Positions 17,712 to 25,144 of a stretch of DNA of 64,000 nucleotides are shown in pieces. The stretch is from the NCBI GenBank assembly GCA_018266075.1, contig JAFEBB010000002.1:124001-188000 (forward strand), given 5' to 3'. The notes beneath the pieces are model-generated. The model did not search any database. It worked only from the letters and a program-made list of their open reading frames with translations, and had not been told where the DNA came from. Origin of the DNA: Deltaproteobacteria bacterium. GTDB taxonomy: Bacteria > Myxococcota > Myxococcia > Myxococcales > SZAS-1. Position 1 is the stretch's first letter, and every line of letters begins with the position of its first letter. Both the position numbers and the translations under genes were made by a program.

Positions 17712-19163
17712 CTAGCGGCAGCTGTTCGAGATGCAGCTCAAGCCCGACGAGCTGCAGTCGAAGCAGGTGCGGCCGGTGCCGCCGCAGGTGCTGTCGCTGG
17801 TGAGCATGCACGAGCCGCCCACGGGATCCGTGCAGCAGCCCGAGCCGCACACCGGCGGGTCGCCATTCTGGCCGTCGCCGCACTGACCGCCGCAGTAGTT
17901 GTACGCGTCCCAGCCCGAGCCGTTGGGGCAGGTATGCACGCAGAAGTTGTTCCCGAGCTGGTCGGGCTCCGCGCAGTGGTTGTTGCCCGGGCAGGTGCCT
18001 CCGCCCGAGCAGAGCCCGCCGCACTGACCGGAGGCGTTCGGCGGCGCCTCCGTGGGGCAGCTCGACGCGCAGTAGCCCCAGCTGCGGGTCACGTCGCCGC
18101 TGGCGGTGACGTCGCAGTAGCCGCTCTGGCAGTCCGCGCCCGTCGTGCAATAGCCGCCGCACATGTTCGACGTGTTCGGCGGCGAGCCCGCAGGGCAGCT
18201 CAGCACGCAGCCGCCCGCGCTGTGGTTGTTCCAGCCGTCGCAGTAGCCGCTCGCGCAGGCGTTGCTGGTGCTGCACGCGCCGTAGCAGGTGTTCTGGCTG
18301 TCGGGCGCCTCGTTGCTGTTCACGCAGCTCAAGAAGCAGTGGTTGCCGTTGAGGGCGATGGTGTTGCAGAGGCCGTAGGGGCAGAGCTGGCCGACGGTGT
18401 CGGGCGTGCAGGTGCCGCCGCAGGTGCCGTCGGTGCCGATGCCCTGGCCCGAGGGACAGGACTCGCAGAGGTTGCCCTGGATTACCTCGTGCGCCGGGCA
18501 CCCGGCCACGCACTGGCCGCCGTTCACCACCACGTCGCAGTAGCCCGTGAGGCAGGCGTCCTGCTGGGTGCAGCCGCCGCCGCACACGCCCACGCTGTTG
18601 TTGGTCCAGCCGTTCGGGCACGACGGGTCGTAGCAGAAGCCGTTGCTCGCATCGCTGCACTGGCCGGTGACGCAGGTGAAGCCGCTGACCGAGCCGCACT
18701 GGCCGCCGCAGATGCCGTTGTTGTTCGGCGTGAGGCCGGTGGTGCAGGTCGCGGCGCAAACGTAGTTGTCGCAGACCAGCGTCGACGTGCAGAGCGCGTT
18801 GGCATTGCACGCGTCGCCGAGCCCGCCGCCCGTGCCGCCGCTGCTCCCGGACGACGCCGTGCCGGTGGAGCCCGATGAGCCCGTCGCGGTGGACGTCGTG
18901 CCCGAGCTGGAGCCCGTCGAGGACGTCGAGCCGGTGCTGGTCGAGCCGGCGGTGGACGCGCCGGAGCTGCTCCCGTGCGAGCCGGTGGTGCTCGCCGCGC
19001 CGCTGCTTCCGTTGGAGGAGCCCGCGCTCGCGCTGGCCGTGGTGCTGCTGGTGGAGCCGGCCGCGGTGGCGCCGCTGCCGCTGCTCGAGGCCGACGACGA
19101 GGTGCTGCTCCCCGAGCAGCCCGCAAGAACTCCCAATCCCACGACCACGACGAGCGCGCGCAC
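17712..19163 (-). CDS. Tethered Cys-rich repeat lipoprotein
   Basis: I start this 483-residue lipoprotein at the GTG at 19163, which has ggagga four bases upstream and gives the signal VRALVVVVGLGVLAGC (Cys16). A Ser/Thr/Gly tether fills residues ~17-110. The remainder is a chain of Cys-rich modules of ~45 residues with CGGxC and GYCD signatures (for example ACLTGYCDVV and DCQSGYCDVT), ending CFDCSSSGLSCISNSC. These are likely small disulfide-bonded knobs on the surface. No known enzyme signature is seen. The gene is 79 bp downstream of another tethered lipoprotein gene. Confidence 0.85.
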   Translation of the reverse strand: MRALVVVVGLGVLAGCSGSSTSSSASSSGSGATAAGSTSSTTASASAGSSNGSSGAASTTGSHGSSSGASTAGSTSTGSTSSTGSSSGTTSTATGSSGSTGTASSGSSGGTGGGLGDACNANALCTSTLVCDNYVCAATCTTGLTPNNNGICGGQCGSVSGFTCVTGQCSDASNGFCYDPSCPNGWTNNSVGVCGGGCTQQDACLTGYCDVVVNGGQCVAGCPAHEVIQGNLCESCPSGQGIGTDGTCGGTCTPDTVGQLCPYGLCNTIALNGNHCFLSCVNSNEAPDSQNTCYGACSTSNACASGYCDGWNNHSAGGCVLSCPAGSPPNTSNMCGGYCTTGADCQSGYCDVTASGDVTRSWGYCASSCPTEAPPNASGQCGGLCSGGGTCPGNNHCAEPDQLGNNFCVHTCPNGSGWDAYNYCGGQCGDGQNGDPPVCGSGCCTDPVGGSCMLTSDSTCGGTGRTCFDCSSSGLSCISNSCR

Positions 19164-19242
19164 GATGTCCTCCGACGAACGACCGGAGGCTAACAGAAAC
19201 TTTCCAGAGTTCCAGGGCCCAGGGCGAGTTCCAAACGGGCGC

Positions 19243-21126
19243 TCACGGCCCGAGCTGCGTGAACAACCCGTAGTGATCGCCCGAAGGGGTGTCCGAAATG
19301 ACCTGCAGGTAGTAGCTCCCCGCCGAGAGCTGGGTGTCGAAGGTGGTGGAGTAGCTGCAGCTGAAGACGCAGCTCGAATCGCCAGGCGCGCACTGCAGCG
19401 GCGCGCTGCCGCAGCTCGACGCATCCGTCAGCACCAGATCGGCATAGTCGTTGGTGTTGAGCGTGGCGTGGAAGTGCATGCTGCTCGGGACATCGATTCT
19501 GAAGTACGCGCCGCTCGCGTCCGGGTAGTGCACGCCGCCGCCGTCGCCCTGGCAGGAGGAGATCGTGGCCGGCGGCTGGGTGAACGGCTGCTGCGTGAAG
19601 GCCTGATATTCATGAGTGCCGGGTTCAATGATTGCCGCGCTCGCACAATCGATATTGCCGGCGGGTAGTTCATAGAACGAGGTCTGGAGCTGCGCGGGCG
19701 CGCCGGTTTGCGAGAACACCACCGCGAGCGGCCCGCTGAGCTCGTTGGAGTTGTCGACGTAGATGCCTGCATCGGAGCCATCGTCGGCGACGCAATAGGA
19801 GCCGTAGCCTTCGCCCAGACAGCCAGGCTCGCGCACCTGCACGGCGACATCCGGCGGGCCCACGATCCGCACCGCGAGTGGATTCGCCGCGGCCGGGAGC
19901 CGGAAGACCTGGCGATAGCCAGCGTCGCCGCCACAGCCGATGGGGTTCACACCCAGGCCGCCGTCGAAGATCACCGTGAACGTGCCCGAGGGGAGCACCG
20001 GTCCATCGGCCACGCACACGAGCGACGGATCCGGCTCGGGCTGCTGGGTCGCGCCCGTGGTGGGCTCGAGGTGCGTGTACAGCGCGTAGCTCCCGCCGGT
20101 GAAGGCCGAGTTGGGATCGGCCACGATGGCCAGTCGGTAGTCGCCGGGCTGAAGCGTGGTCGCGAGCTGCGTGAAGATGTCGGGCGAGAAGCTGCCTTGC
20201 TCTTGCGACGGTGCACACTGCGTCGGCGCTGCGGTGCAGCTCGCGCCGTCGATGAGCACGAGATCCGCGTACGGATCCGAGCGCAGCTCCGCCGTGAAGT
20301 TGCTCGCCACATCGACGTGGAGCGCGAACCACACGCCCTGTAGCGGCGAGACCGCGGTGTCGAAGTAGCTCCCGCCGTCGAGCGACGCGCAGCTCGGCGA
20401 TGGCGCCGGCACGCTGAAGCCGTTGAGCACGTTGCCGTGGCTCTCGGTGTCCACGCCGGTGAGCGCCACCGCGTGCGCGCAGTCGATCGCGTCCGTCGGA
20501 TTCAGCTCGTGTCGCACCACCGCCGGCGCGTCGACGCCATCTGCCGACTCGAACGAGACCACGTAGTCGCCCGGTGTGAGATCCGTGAACGTGTCGCTGC
20601 CGCACGAGAGCGGCGCCGACGCGCAGCCGGGGACCGTCACCACGGCCGTCGCGCCGTTCGCGACGTGGAGGTGCAAGCGCTCGGCGATGTCGAGGTGCAG
20701 CGTGTAGCTCGTGCGGAACACCGCGCTGCCGCTGCACGCGCCGGCCGGATCGCCGAGCGTGCCGCCGAAGCTCACGGTCAGCGGACCGGTGGGCAGCGGG
20801 TCGGTCGCGCTGGGGCAGGCGAGGGTGACGCCCGTGGTGCCGCTCGTGCCCTGCGTCGACGACGTGCTCGAGGTGCCATTGCTCACCGACGTTCCCGTCG
20901 ATGAACCGCCGAGCGTTCCGCTGTTCGTGCTCGATGGGCCGTTCGTCGAGGTCGCGTTCGTGGTTGACGTGCCCGAGGTCGAGGAGCCGTTGCCCGATGT
21001 CGACGTGCCGCTGGTCGCGCCGTGCGTGCTCGTGCCGCTGGTGCTCGAGCTCGAGCTCGACTTCGAGTGACACGCAGCCGCGAGGCATGCCGTCGCCGCA
21101 ATGATCCCCGTCGAGAGTGCGCGCAT
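19243..21126 (-). CDS. Tethered lipoprotein with repeated PPC-like beta domains
   Basis: The 627-residue protein has a lipoprotein signal ending LAAAC (Cys19) and a Ser/Thr/Gly tether to about residue 95. The rest consists of beta-sandwich units of ~110-130 residues. Each contains a phrase like LTPGDYVVSFES, LQPGDYRLAIVAD or LSAGSYYLQVIS and conserved DYADLVL or DPYADLVL segments. This is the pattern of bacterial pre-peptidase C-terminal (PPC)-like domains, often found on secreted proteins as binding modules. No catalytic domain is present, so it is probably a surface-binding protein. Confidence 0.85.
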   Translation of the reverse strand: MRALSTGIIAATACLAAACHSKSSSSSSTSGTSTHGATSGTSTSGNGSSTSGTSTTNATSTNGPSSTNSGTLGGSSTGTSVSNGTSSTSSTQGTSGTTGVTLACPSATDPLPTGPLTVSFGGTLGDPAGACSGSAVFRTSYTLHLDIAERLHLHVANGATAVVTVPGCASAPLSCGSDTFTDLTPGDYVVSFESADGVDAPAVVRHELNPTDAIDCAHAVALTGVDTESHGNVLNGFSVPAPSPSCASLDGGSYFDTAVSPLQGVWFALHVDVASNFTAELRSDPYADLVLIDGASCTAAPTQCAPSQEQGSFSPDIFTQLATTLQPGDYRLAIVADPNSAFTGGSYALYTHLEPTTGATQQPEPDPSLVCVADGPVLPSGTFTVIFDGGLGVNPIGCGGDAGYRQVFRLPAAANPLAVRIVGPPDVAVQVREPGCLGEGYGSYCVADDGSDAGIYVDNSNELSGPLAVVFSQTGAPAQLQTSFYELPAGNIDCASAAIIEPGTHEYQAFTQQPFTQPPATISSCQGDGGGVHYPDASGAYFRIDVPSSMHFHATLNTNDYADLVLTDASSCGSAPLQCAPGDSSCVFSCSYSTTFDTQLSAGSYYLQVISDTPSGDHYGLFTQLGP

Positions 21127-21276: not shown

Positions 21277-22347
21277 ATGAACGTGAAGCCGCGCTCGCCA
21301 GCCAGACAATGCTCGATGCGCAACGTCGTCGGCAGCGTCGCGGGGCTGATGATCCTGGGGTGGATGCTGACCACGCCCCGGTCCATCGCCTCGGGTCGCG
21401 CGCTTGCGGCCACGCCCGCGGTGCCGCTCACCTGCGGCGACGCGCTGCAAGGGCGCTCGCCCGCCAGCGTGCATCCGGTCGAGGTGAGCGTGTCCAACGA
21501 CTCGGCGACCCGACTCGAGCTGATGTGGATGAACTTCAGAGGCCAGCCGAAGTCGTACGGCTTCATCGCGCCCCACGAGACGCGCGCGCTGCAGACCTAC
21601 GCCGGACACGTGTGGGTACTCGAGGATCCGCAGGGCAAGTGCACGCGCGCGTTCGCCGCCGGCGAGCCCGCGGTTCCTGCGCGCGACACCACGCCGGTGA
21701 CCTGGAACAGCGAAGAGTCGAACGGAATTACCTATGTGTTTGCCTCGAAGGTCTCAGGCGTGGCGCTTCAGCGCGCGAAGTACATCGTGGACCACATGCT
21801 CGAGGGCCTGCCCGCGATTCGCGCGAGCATGGCGAAGCGCAAGTTCAAGGTGGAGATCATCGCCAAGGATCAGGTGCTGTCGGACTTGCCCGACTATGCG
21901 TCACTCAAGGGAAAGCGCACCCGCGACGGCAGGGACTTCGACACCGGCACCCGCGGTCTCGGTGGCGAGGAGATGTGCTCCATCGGCGAGGAGAACCTGC
22001 TCTGCCTCTCCGAGCAGCCCTATCGCGACGAGGACATTTTCATTCATGAGTTCTCGCACAGCATCAAGTCCAACCTCGCGCGCGAGGACAGCGCCGCCAT
22101 CGACGCCGCGTTCGAGGCCGCCCGCGACGCGTCGGTCTACCCGAGCGGCATTTATATGATTCGTGATTCTCAAGAGTACTGGGCCGAGGGCACGCAGGTG
22201 TTCTTCGCCGCCACGCGTCGCTCGGACGTGAACGGCGGCTTCAACACCCGCGAGCGCTTGCAGGCTCACGATCCCAGGCTCTTCGAGTTGCTTCAGCGCA
22301 TCTACGACAAGGACGATGTTGCGCCGGCGAAGGGCTGCCGGTACTGA
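21277..22347 (+). CDS. VHL beta-domain zinc metallopeptidase, secreted
   Basis: A 356-residue protein with an N-terminal hydrophobic segment (VVGSVAGLMILGWML) that probably directs export. Residues ~68-130 resemble the von Hippel-Lindau beta domain: SNDSATRLELMWMNFRG, YGFIAPHETRALQTYAGHVW. Residues ~165-356 contain IFIHEFSHSI, an HExxH zinc site (His257, Glu258, His261). It is followed 40 residues later by SQEYWAEGTQVFF, whose Glu (300 or 304) is the likely third ligand. Cys234 and Cys243 flank the site. The reaction is predicted to be peptide hydrolysis outside the cell; the VHL domain is probably a binding module. Another in-frame ATG at 21316 gives a shorter signal peptide. Neither start has a strong SD. 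Confidence 0.88.
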   Translation: MNVKPRSPARQCSMRNVVGSVAGLMILGWMLTTPRSIASGRALAATPAVPLTCGDALQGRSPASVHPVEVSVSNDSATRLELMWMNFRGQPKSYGFIAPHETRALQTYAGHVWVLEDPQGKCTRAFAAGEPAVPARDTTPVTWNSEESNGITYVFASKVSGVALQRAKYIVDHMLEGLPAIRASMAKRKFKVEIIAKDQVLSDLPDYASLKGKRTRDGRDFDTGTRGLGGEEMCSIGEENLLCLSEQPYRDEDIFIHEFSHSIKSNLAREDSAAIDAAFEAARDASVYPSGIYMIRDSQEYWAEGTQVFFAATRRSDVNGGFNTRERLQAHDPRLFELLQRIYDKDDVAPAKGCRY

Positions 22348-22349
22348 CG

Positions 22350-23882
22350 CTACGCCCGCTCGAAGTGCGCCACACGCACGGTCTTCTCGCCCACCGTCAC
22401 GCGCCACACGCGCTGGAGCGTCAGGTGATCGGGCTCGGCCTTCCAATCGAGCAGGTAGATCCGCACCGCGCCGGTGGTGACGTCATTCTCGACGTCATTG
22501 GAGACGGTCTTGAGATCGGAGGTGATGATCGAGCGCGCGGTCCCGTCGGTGTAGGCGATGAGCTCTTCCGCGGTGGTGTTCACCGAGTCGCGCTCACCCA
22601 CCGTGACCGACACCAGCCGATAGATGCTGCTCGGCGCCTGCAGCGAGCCCTGCACCCAGAGCCCGCGCGTCTCGGAGCGCATCATCCGTTCGGCCATGCA
22701 GGGCTGTTCCACGGCGTCATTGCACACCGCCTGGCAGTTGCCGGGCATCAGGTTTCCCTGTGCGTCGCTCACCTCGAAGCAGGACATCACCTGCTCGCGG
22801 TGCAGCAGCGGCTTGAGCGCGGCCTCGCAGCGCGCCACGCAATCCGGGATCTGGGTGCCCGCGCCCACCAGGTCACTGATCACGTTGGCGGCGTCGGCCA
22901 CGTCGTCCTTGGAGCTCGGCTCGAACAGCGCCAGGTCCTTCGTGGCCAGGTAGCCCAGGCTGGAAGCGAAGGCCTTGTCGGCGCGCGCGGCGCTGGCGAG
23001 CGCAGCTCGTCGACTGCCGAGCCCGGTCACGGTGGTGGAGATGCGCACCGCGTGCTGACGCAGCGACTTGTCGCGGCCCTTCTCCCAGGCGGTCGTTGCC
23101 GCCAGCGCGCGCTGCATCACGTCGCGCAGCGCCGCCGGGGCTTCCACGCCCGAGAGCGCCTTCGCCCCGCTCGTCCCCGGGGCAATGGCGAACTTGCCGT
23201 CCTGCGCTTCGGTGTAGCGGGGCGCGAGCTGCACCGCGCTCTTCGACTGTCCCGCTGCCGCGGCCGCCTTGCGATCGGCCACGAACGCGCGGATCTGCTC
23301 CGCGGCGCGGGCTTCGACGGCCGCGTTGTACGTGTCGTCGCCATCGACGTAGACCTGCACGTCGCTGATGCAGAGGTCGTCGTACTTGGTGCCGGCGTAG
23401 GCGCTGATCACGGTGAGCCGCACGCCTTCGACGGAAGCCGGAACCGGCAGCTCCACCTTCTGCCAGCCGAGCACGTTCTGCAGCTCCACCTCTACGGGCC
23501 TTCCGCCCGGACCGACGGCGCCCTCGGTGCGAACCAACGGATCCAACCGGATCTTGCGCGGGCGCGCGTTGGCCTCGAAGAGCGCCTGCGACTTTTGATA
23601 ACCGCTGCGGATGAAGACCTTGAACGCGCGCGCCTTCTTGAGCGCCGGGCCGTACCACGACAGGGCCTCGCCCTCGCCCGGGCCGGCCACGCCCTCCACC
23701 CAGGCGGTGGCCGGGTCGTCATCGGCTGCGTAGAGCGGCAGGTAGTTCTGCTCGAACTTGTTCCACCCGTTGGAGAGGAAGCTGGACGCGTCCATCTGGC
23801 GCGGCTGGAGGCGCTTGAAGCCGCCGGGGTCGGGCTGGAGCACGGGCGCGGCGCAGAGCGCGAGGGCAAGCAGGGCGGTCAT
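22350..23882 (-). CDS. Secreted protein with an N-terminal NADase-type glycan-binding/discoidin-like domain
   Basis: The 510-residue protein begins with a short signal peptide (MTALLALALCAAPVLQ). Residues ~30-175 resemble discoidin-like domains called NADase-type glycan-binding: ASSFLSNGWNKFEQNYLPLY, DDDPATAWVEG, AFKVFIRSGYQKS and ISDVQVYVDG. The remaining ~320 residues have six cysteines, several paired as CVARCEA and CQAVCND, and no motif that I recognise. The start overlaps the stop of the pentahaem cytochrome gene (ATGA), so the two are translationally coupled and probably act together in the periplasm or at the surface. Confidence 0.85.
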   Translation of the reverse strand: MTALLALALCAAPVLQPDPGGFKRLQPRQMDASSFLSNGWNKFEQNYLPLYAADDDPATAWVEGVAGPGEGEALSWYGPALKKARAFKVFIRSGYQKSQALFEANARPRKIRLDPLVRTEGAVGPGGRPVEVELQNVLGWQKVELPVPASVEGVRLTVISAYAGTKYDDLCISDVQVYVDGDDTYNAAVEARAAEQIRAFVADRKAAAAAGQSKSAVQLAPRYTEAQDGKFAIAPGTSGAKALSGVEAPAALRDVMQRALAATTAWEKGRDKSLRQHAVRISTTVTGLGSRRAALASAARADKAFASSLGYLATKDLALFEPSSKDDVADAANVISDLVGAGTQIPDCVARCEAALKPLLHREQVMSCFEVSDAQGNLMPGNCQAVCNDAVEQPCMAERMMRSETRGLWVQGSLQAPSSIYRLVSVTVGERDSVNTTAEELIAYTDGTARSIITSDLKTVSNDVENDVTTGAVRIYLLDWKAEPDHLTLQRVWRVTVGEKTVRVAHFERA

Positions 23883-24997
23883 CGTTTCTCCTCGGGGTTG
23901 GCGAGATATCCAGACTGCAGGAGCACGCGTGAAGCTTCGGCGGGCAGCATTCCGTCGGCCTCTTGCTGCAGCGAGACCAGGTGCATCACCAGCCGCCAGG
24001 CGATGAGCGGCGGATCCTGGAGCGGCAGGGCCACGCGCACGGGCACGCCGGGCTGGAGCCGATGATCGCCGGTCACGGTGCGGTGCGGCGACGCTTCACC
24101 CGGTGCCTGCGCGTCGCCGAGCGTGCGTCCGAAGCGGGCGAGCACGATCGGCTTCTCGAAGAGCGGATCCGCGGCGGCTTCGACGGTGAGCCAGCGCATC
24201 ACGTCGCCGGTGGGCAGCGCGTGTCCGGCGCCGCGCGCCTCGAGCACGAGCGCGCCTGGCTGGGGGCGAACCGCGATCGCCGCCGCCAGCGCGTCAGGAC
24301 GTCGCACGCCGCCGAATGCGTGATCGCCGCCGCCGTGGCAGTCGAGGCAGCCGCGCGCGTCGCCGGTCTTGGCCTGCCACGCGGTCCACTCGCCGAACGT
24401 GTCCTGCTGCGCGGGCGCGGCCGTGAGCGAGGAGATCTCGCCGTCCGCGCCGTGGAGCGCGAAGCCGAACTCATGGCACTGCGCGCAGAGCTTCGAGCCG
24501 CCGGCGTGCGGGCTGACCTCGAGCGCGTGGGGCGCGTCGGCGCTCGCGTGGGCGGCGGTCACGGCATGGTGCCCGGCGTGGCATGCGGCGCAGGTGACGC
24601 CCCGTTCCTCGGCCGGCGCGTTCGGATCGATGGGGCCGGCGCTCAGGTCGCGGGCCAGCGGCGCGTGGCAGCGCAGGCACCACGTCGGATCGTCGGCGGT
24701 GAGCGCAGCCTGAAATACGAAGTTCGTGCGCGCGGTGGCGTGGCCGCTCTGGGCCCAGGCCCTGGCTTCGTCGGCGTGGCACGACGCGCAGCGGACCTGC
24801 GACCAATCCTCCAAGCCGGGCGCGACGGGACCGAGCCGCGGCGCCGCGAGGCCCTTGGGAAAGCGCGGGCTGGTCGCATCTGGACGGGTGCCGTCGACGA
24901 CCGCAGCGCCGAGCAGAATTGGAGCGAGGGCGAGCGGCCACAGCGCGGACGCGAGGCGGCGGCGGAACGCGAGAGCTCTGGCGCGCGGGTCGGACAT
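23879..24997 (-). CDS. Pentahaem cytochrome c
   Basis: This 372-residue protein has a hydrophobic N-terminal segment (LALAPILLGAAVV) after a basic leader and is probably exported and membrane-anchored. It has five c-type haem attachment sites: CASCH, CLRCH, CAACH, CAQCH and CLDCH, all in residues ~70-225. This resembles the cytochrome c554 / multihaem family that relays electrons in the periplasm. The C-terminal ~140 residues are beta-rich without haem motifs. I prefer the ATG at 24997 over a TTG at 25018. Its stop overlaps the next gene as ATGA. Confidence 0.9.
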   Translation of the reverse strand: MSDPRARALAFRRRLASALWPLALAPILLGAAVVDGTRPDATSPRFPKGLAAPRLGPVAPGLEDWSQVRCASCHADEARAWAQSGHATARTNFVFQAALTADDPTWCLRCHAPLARDLSAGPIDPNAPAEERGVTCAACHAGHHAVTAAHASADAPHALEVSPHAGGSKLCAQCHEFGFALHGADGEISSLTAAPAQQDTFGEWTAWQAKTGDARGCLDCHGGGDHAFGGVRRPDALAAAIAVRPQPGALVLEARGAGHALPTGDVMRWLTVEAAADPLFEKPIVLARFGRTLGDAQAPGEASPHRTVTGDHRLQPGVPVRVALPLQDPPLIAWRLVMHLVSLQQEADGMLPAEASRVLLQSGYLANPEEKR

Positions 24998-25144
24998 GAC
25001 GCGGACATCGACGCCCAATGCCGGCGCCGTGCCCGGACTCTACGCCAGGGATCCCCGCCCGCCGACGACTCAGGCGAGGTGACGCCCCACCGCGACCGCG
25101 GTCATCGACCGCATCGACACTTCGATCTCCGCCGCGTCGGGACG

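What the first reader, a model, noticed from the sequence alone, without database searches (positions are those of the whole stretch)
21277..22347. VHL-type beta domain on a bacterial zinc metallopeptidase
Residues ~68-130 have the pVHL beta-domain pattern; an HEFSH metallopeptidase follows. In animals VHL recognises hydroxyproline. Here the domain is exported and could bind modified or specific prey proteins.
Basis: partly seen in the sequence, partly recalled or inferred. Interest (0 to 1): 0.62.

Follow-up and report, generated by a model that had tools for sequence, protein, structure and literature searches.

The report
VHL-fold domain on exported bacterial protease
A soil-type bacterium (probably a myxobacterium) encodes an exported zinc protease that carries, next to its catalytic part, the same small fold with which animal cells read hydroxyproline in oxygen sensing; the pairing recurs in at least three bacterial phyla, so this fold was probably a detachable protein-binding module on bacterial exported enzymes.

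Summary
Window 21277-22347 (+) encodes a 356-aa protein with a likely signal peptide, a genuine VHL beta domain (Pfam PF01847, E 3.9e-10, twice the cut-off; the predicted structure matches pVHL at about 1.5 A over 77 columns) and a C-terminal HEFSH zinc-peptidase domain. By profile, the peptidase family is closest to Pro-Pro endopeptidases and ATLF-like domains. All five side chains of the human hydroxyproline pocket are present (W84, Y94, T107 for Ser111, H111, W113). The pVHL alpha (elongin) domain is absent. It is not a one-off: I found eight VHL + same-family peptidase fusions in three phyla, in both domain orders, and the peptidase tree rejects a single origin. About twenty more VHL domains sit on S9/DPP-IV-type peptidases. 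Bacterial VHL domains are catalogued in Pfam, and one paper discusses one, but I found no description of this pairing. Most likely it is an exported endopeptidase whose VHL module docks a proline/hydroxyproline-containing polypeptide. Binding and cleavage are inferred, not shown. The pocket is lost in six of the other seven fusions, which weakens a universal hydroxyproline role. 'Prey' targeting has no support. New variant of a known kind.

The parts
21277..22347 (+). 356-aa exported VHL-peptidase protein (whole ORF, stop included)
   Evidence: GC3 0.87 in this frame
21277..21411 (+). N-terminal export signal (residues 1-45; hydrophobic core about 16-32, possible cleavage near ALA-A 43-46; start may be ATG 21277 or the in-frame ATG at 21316)
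   Evidence: mean Kyte-Doolittle 2.08 for VVGSVAGLMILGWML; by inspection, no signal-peptide predictor was available
21454..21666 (+). VHL beta domain (Pfam 60-119; strands in the model 67-128)
21526..21615 (+). Hydroxyproline-pocket residues W84, Y94, T107, H111, W113 (human W88, Y98, S111, H115, W117)
   Evidence: alignment; pocket defined in PMC9528729
21433..21642 (+). Cys53 and Cys122, candidate disulfide flanking the VHL domain; the same 69-70 spacing occurs in L031, L033, L034, L062
21703..22314 (+). ATLF/Pro-Pro-endopeptidase-like metallopeptidase domain (about residues 143-346)
   Evidence: profile A4 against PDB chains: PPEP/Zmp1 E 6e-6, ATLF-like 9g0j 1.4e-5
22045..22059 (+). HEFSH zinc-binding and catalytic motif (H257, E258, H261)
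22153..22155 (+). Y293, counterpart of the PPEP-1 oxyanion Tyr178
   Evidence: alignment; PPEP residues from PMC12828418
22174..22176 (+). E300 (EYWAEG), third zinc ligand, counterpart of PPEP-1 Glu185
   Evidence: alignment

Best explanation
It is an exported (periplasmic or secreted) zinc endopeptidase of the ATLF/Pro-Pro-endopeptidase-like gluzincin group, with an N-terminal VHL-fold module. The VHL module works as a substrate-docking domain, much as a carbohydrate-binding module does on a glycosidase. It holds an extended stretch of polypeptide that contains a proline-type residue, most likely 4-hydroxyproline, in the W84/Y94/T107/H111/W113 pocket, so that the HEFSH site cuts the same polypeptide nearby. 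Likely substrates are proline- or hydroxyproline-rich extracellular proteins (plant or algal wall glycoproteins, collagen-like proteins, or a modified bacterial surface protein). Shown by computation: both domains, the pocket side chains, the catalytic set H257-E258-H261-Y293-E300, and the recurrent independent pairing. Inferred: export, peptide binding, hydroxyproline preference and the substrate class.
For: VHL fold by Pfam and structure. All five pocket side chains are kept in P0001. In 40 Pfam-found bacterial VHL domains the five pocket positions are five of the six least variable columns (W88 40/40, Y98 36/40, T/S111 38/40, H115 38/40, W117 38/40). The peptidase profile matches Pro-Pro endopeptidases at 6e-6, and the catalytic His-Glu-His-Tyr-Glu set is intact. 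The same pairing occurs in L032, L101, L102 and L109 (Verrucomicrobiota) and L061, L076 and L077 (Acidobacteriota), with VHL at either end. Trees reject one origin for the fusions (AU p 0.014 and 0.029; P0001 with L101/L109 p 0.0026). Twenty further VHL domains sit on S9/DPP-IV-type peptidases, a family known for cutting after proline.
Against: Pocket conservation is partly a detection bias. Of 12 VHL domains found only with a bacterial profile, one keeps all five residues, and six of the seven other peptidase-fused VHL domains have lost at least one. In L077 the peptidase motif is intact while the pocket is gone. VHL domains also occur on sulfatases, caspase-like proteins, a kinase and AraC-type regulators, so the module is not tied to proteolysis. 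The S-loop Trp/Tyr and the Glu-Glu tandem typical of PPEPs are not evident in P0001, so Pro-Pro cleavage cannot be claimed. The peptidase half was not modelled with confidence.
Confidence: 0.42

Rival explanations
1. The VHL-fold module is a general extracellular docking domain whose ligand is something other than hydroxyproline, such as a plain proline-rich peptide, a glycan or an envelope component. It localises many kinds of exported enzyme, and the peptidase is one user.
For: The module is found on S9 peptidases, sulfatases and caspase-like proteins, as stand-alone exported proteins and in tandem. The pocket is eroded in many members.
Against: In P0001 and 31 of 40 Pfam-found domains exactly the hydroxyproline-contacting side chains are kept, including the polar S/T111 and H115 that bind the 4-hydroxyl in pVHL.
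Confidence: 0.3
2. The VHL domain is a structural or autoinhibitory pro-domain of the peptidase, and its pocket holds a loop or linker of the same protein.
For: The domain lies directly between signal peptide and catalytic domain, as pro-domains do.
Against: It occurs at either end of the same peptidase family, VHL-less homologues are common, and the module is found alone or on unrelated proteins.
Confidence: 0.12
3. It is a processing protease for the cell's own surface protein, as PPEP-1 is in C. difficile, with hydroxylation supplied by the cell's own prolyl hydroxylase.
For: The peptidase is PPEP-like, and one 2OG-FeII oxygenase gene is present in the genome.
Against: That oxygenase is on another contig, matches only the broad superfamily (35-38 bits) and is not shown to be a prolyl hydroxylase. 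The gene has no linked surface-protein operon.
Confidence: 0.1
4. It is an ordinary secreted scavenging protease, and the VHL domain is a neutral passenger.
For: The gene is rare: five VHL genomes of 195 in the phylum by Pfam, eight of 193 by the bacterial profile.
Against: The same pairing was made repeatedly, and the pocket and fold are kept at high divergence.
Confidence: 0.06

Closest known systems
pVHL (von Hippel-Lindau tumour suppressor) beta domain, Pfam PF01847
   Same: Fold (rmsd about 1.5 A over 77 columns in the model) and the five hydroxyproline-contacting side chains, with Ser111 replaced by Thr.
   Different: No alpha domain and therefore no elongin/cullin link; exported; Cys pair; fused to a peptidase; ligand untested.
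Pro-Pro endopeptidases PPEP-1/Zmp1, PPEP-2, PPEP-3 and ATLF-like domain proteins
   Same: Profile-level homology, HExxH, counterparts of Tyr178 and Glu185, and the GLGG segment.
   Different: Single Glu (Q299-E300 instead of Glu-Glu), no S-loop Trp/Tyr visible in the alignment, extra VHL module; cleavage specificity unknown.
Peptidase_M90 (MtfA), Pfam PF06167
   Same: Weak resemblance over the HExxH-to-end region (10-12 bits).
   Different: Below the family cut-off (26.2); MtfA is not an exported VHL fusion.
Bacterial VHL-domain protein of Litorilituus sediminis (EMK97_00595, PMC9002001)
   Same: Exported bacterial protein with a VHL beta domain.
   Different: No peptidase partner noted in the passages read; the paper reads it as a tumour suppressor from bioinformatics alone.
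VHL-bearing S9/DPP-IV proteins of Verrucomicrobiota (L035-L056 here)
   Same: VHL module joined to a bacterial peptidase.
   Different: Serine peptidase of unrelated fold; the VHL lies ahead of the propeller match.

Membership tests
VHL beta domain (PF01847) | Score above the curated cut-off | tested here: met
   40 bits against 21
VHL beta domain (PF01847) | pVHL beta-sandwich fold | tested here: met
   Top 50 PDB neighbours of the model are pVHL chains
VHL beta domain (PF01847) | Hydroxyproline pocket W88, Y98, S111, H115, W117 | tested here: met
   W84, Y94, T107, H111, W113; Ser111 is Thr
VHL beta domain (PF01847) | Binding of a hydroxyproline peptide | not testable with these tools
   Needs ITC or peptide array
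pVHL E3-ligase receptor | C-terminal alpha domain / elongin BC box | tested here: not met
   No further Pfam VHL-type match; the region after the beta domain is the peptidase
Gluzincin metallopeptidase | HExxH plus downstream Glu ligand | tested here: met
   H257 E258 H261 and E300, conserved in the active homologues aligned
ATLF (PF07737, peptidase M34 group) | Score above the curated cut-off | tested here: not met
   P0001 16 bits against 27.4; relatives in A4 reach E 3.4e-7
Peptidase_M90 (PF06167) | Score above the curated cut-off | tested here: not met
   10-12 bits against 26.2
Pro-Pro endopeptidase (PPEP) | Catalytic HExxH, oxyanion Tyr, zinc Glu | tested here: met
   H257/E258/H261, Y293, E300 by alignment
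Pro-Pro endopeptidase (PPEP) | Glu-Glu tandem at the zinc Glu | tested here: not met
   Q299-E300 in P0001
Pro-Pro endopeptidase (PPEP) | S-loop Trp or Tyr that contacts substrate prolines | tested here: inconclusive
   Segment GKRTRDGRDFDTGTRGLGG holds no Trp or Tyr, but the loop alignment is uncertain
Pro-Pro endopeptidase (PPEP) | Cleavage between two prolines | not testable with these tools
   Needs a peptide-library assay

The most novel reading that the evidence does not exclude
P0001, with both pocket and active site intact, would be a minimal 'read hydroxyproline, then cut' enzyme, a one-chain analogue of pVHL-directed proteolysis.
Probability: 0.15. Interest if true: 0.85.

Novelty: new variant of a known kind. 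Interest (0 to 1): 0.5.

Why it matters
pVHL is known as an animal oxygen-sensing protein, and what the fold did elsewhere is hardly studied. A repeated, independent joining of the fold to exported bacterial peptidases, with the hydroxyproline pocket kept in this protein, turns the origin of hydroxyproline reading into a question that can be tested with one small soluble protein. If binding holds, it also offers a natural module for hydroxyproline-bearing proteins such as collagen and plant or algal wall glycoproteins.

Tried and rejected
Relatives in viral contigs: none. A first VHL alignment and the peptidase alignment were too divergent for pattern searches. A genome scan with a three-row VHL alignment gave five loci, from Verrucomicrobiota, Acidobacteriota and cyanobacteria. 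Folding P0001 without homologues gave no usable model (pLDDT 32), so the structural confirmation rests on the alignment-guided model. Rejected: membership in M90 or ATLF by Pfam score; a role as an E3-ligase receptor (no alpha domain); an operon-based function, because neighbours on both sides run on the other strand and no promoter or terminator pattern was found. I first read the pocket conservation as strong; a bias check showed that domains found without the animal-based model keep it far less often, so I lowered the claim.

Full report
Observation. Window 21277-22347 (+) is a 356-aa ORF. Its third codon positions are 87% GC, while all overlapping frames lack that signature, so it is the coding frame. 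Residues 1-45 look like an export signal: a hydrophobic stretch at 16-32, then ALAATPA (by inspection, no predictor at hand). Residues 60-119 match Pfam VHL with 40 bits, E 3.9e-10, against a cut-off of 21, and match solved pVHL chains directly at 2e-5. It is the only VHL domain found in the genome, and the same search rings in 0 of 14 control genomes.

Fold. AlphaFold2 with four VHL rows from the search for related loci gives a beta sandwich at residues 67-128, with pLDDT mostly 90-95. Foldseek against the PDB returns only pVHL chains in the top 50, at about 77 aligned columns and about 1.5 A where the alignment stays within the domain. Without homologues the fold is not recovered. No alpha domain follows.

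Peptidase. HEFSH is at 257-261. Aligned homologues from the same phylum, Verrucomicrobiota, Acidobacteriota and rhizobial plasmids mostly share HExxH, a Tyr (293) and E-Y-W/F (300). A profile of eight such domains finds Pro-Pro endopeptidases (PPEP-1/Zmp1) at 6e-6 and another ATLF-like protein at 1.4e-5. Pfam ATLF is reached by relatives (3.4e-7) but not by P0001 itself (16 bits against 27.4). From PMC12828418 PPEPs have HEXXH, an oxyanion Tyr, a zinc Glu within a Glu-Glu tandem, and an S-loop Trp or Tyr. P0001 has the HExxH, the Tyr and the zinc Glu, lacks the tandem (Q299-E300) and shows no aromatic Trp or Tyr in the S-loop segment. It is a relative with an intact active site and unknown specificity.

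Pocket. The hydroxyproline site of human VHL is W88, Y98, H110, S111, H115 and W117, with the hydroxyl held by S111 and H115 and H110 acting through its backbone (PMC9528729). P0001 has W84, Y94, T107, H111 and W113. Among 40 bacterial VHL domains (38 from the Pfam searches and two added), these five are five of the six least variable of 58 columns. Because the Pfam model is partly built on animal VHL, I repeated the count with 12 domains found only with a bacterial profile. One of the 12 keeps all five, and overall 32 of 52 do. P0001 is in the group that keeps the pocket; the family as a whole does not always do so.

Recurrence. VHL domains are rare: 5 of 195 genomes of the phylum by Pfam and 8 of 193 by the bacterial profile; 21 of 388 and 23 of 258 in the phylum of a Verrucomicrobiia genome; 4 of 396 and 4 of 257 in the phylum of a Terriglobia (Acidobacteriota) genome. 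This peptidase family is rare too (11 of 195 genomes). Yet they are joined in P0001, in L032, L101, L102 and L109 (Verrucomicrobiota) and in L061, L076 and L077 (Acidobacteriota). L101, L102 and L109 have the order of P0001 (signal, VHL, peptidase); the others have VHL at the C-terminus. In L061 and L076 the HExxH motif is lost (REFAI, RQLAI), so these are probable pseudo-enzymes. L102 is the most divergent member and its place is unsure. A maximum-likelihood tree puts the P0001 peptidase with VHL-less relatives from its own phylum (94/97). An AU test rejects all fusions as one clade (p 0.014 with five fusions, 0.029 with eight) and P0001 with the same-order L101/L109 (p 0.0026). The pairing was thus probably made more than once. 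Twenty further VHL domains sit on S9/DPP-IV-type peptidases, and others on sulfatases, caspase-like proteins, a kinase and AraC-type regulators (the last by inspection only).

A Cys pair 69-70 residues apart flanks the VHL domain in P0001 and in L031, L033, L034 and L062, fitting an oxidising, exported setting and linking this VHL to cyanobacterial, alphaproteobacterial and acidobacterial ones rather than to that of L032.

Mechanism. The best-supported picture is a docking module plus protease on one chain, with the pocket likely to hold a proline-type residue. Shown: domains, residues, recurrence. Inferred: export, binding, hydroxyproline preference, substrate. The one 2OG oxygenase of that superfamily found in the genome is on another contig and matches only the broad family, so an endogenous hydroxylated target is not indicated. 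Extracellular foreign hydroxyproline proteins are the simpler guess. Prey targeting is not supported by anything found.

Known or new. A bacterial exported VHL protein has been discussed once (PMC9002001), and VHL domains in bacteria are detected by the Pfam model. Literature searches for VHL with metallopeptidases, Verrucomicrobia or VHL-domain-containing proteins gave nothing on this pairing; the library holds open-licence papers only. I rate it a new variant of a known kind.

Noticed in passing
L022, L080, L081 and hits H26-H55: VHL-less homologues of this peptidase lie on conjugative plasmids of legume-nodulating Rhizobium (about 50 records) and of Paraburkholderia phenoliruptrix (pSYM), near nodA in L022 and L081; some are annotated 'glycoside hydrolase'. 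This could be an exported nodulation-linked protease.
   Followed up: partly
L061:610-1737 and L076:700-1737: Acidobacteriota peptidase-VHL fusions with HExxH lost (REFAI, RQLAI): probable pseudo-peptidases that keep the VHL part.
   Followed up: partly
20 loci within L035-L056: Verrucomicrobiota S9/DPP-IV-type peptidases carry a VHL domain, mostly just ahead of the DPPIV_N propeller match (at the C-terminus in L049); a widespread architecture with no report found.
   Followed up: partly
L058:1-1818 (-): Tandem array of about five divergent VHL-like repeats in one exported protein (ORF 1663 aa in the genome).
   Followed up: no
L104:1471-2676 (-) and L110:1086-2300 (-): AraC-type regulator-like sequences (by inspection) with a C-terminal VHL-like domain whose pocket is lost: a possible intracellular use of the fold.
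   Followed up: no
L030:1424-4177, L078, L060:1441-3003 (-): VHL domains at the C-terminus of caspase-like proteins (one with a ricin lectin domain) and of a Ser/Thr kinase in Acidobacteriota.
   Followed up: no
window 22350-23882 (-): Neighbouring gene with an F5/8-type-C-like domain (PF25302, E 2.6e-17), followed by a multihaem cytochrome gene at 23879-25018 (-).
   Followed up: no
window 17712-21126 (-): Two large exported, low-complexity Ser/Thr-rich lipoprotein-like genes (570 and 627 aa) without Pfam families.
   Followed up: no
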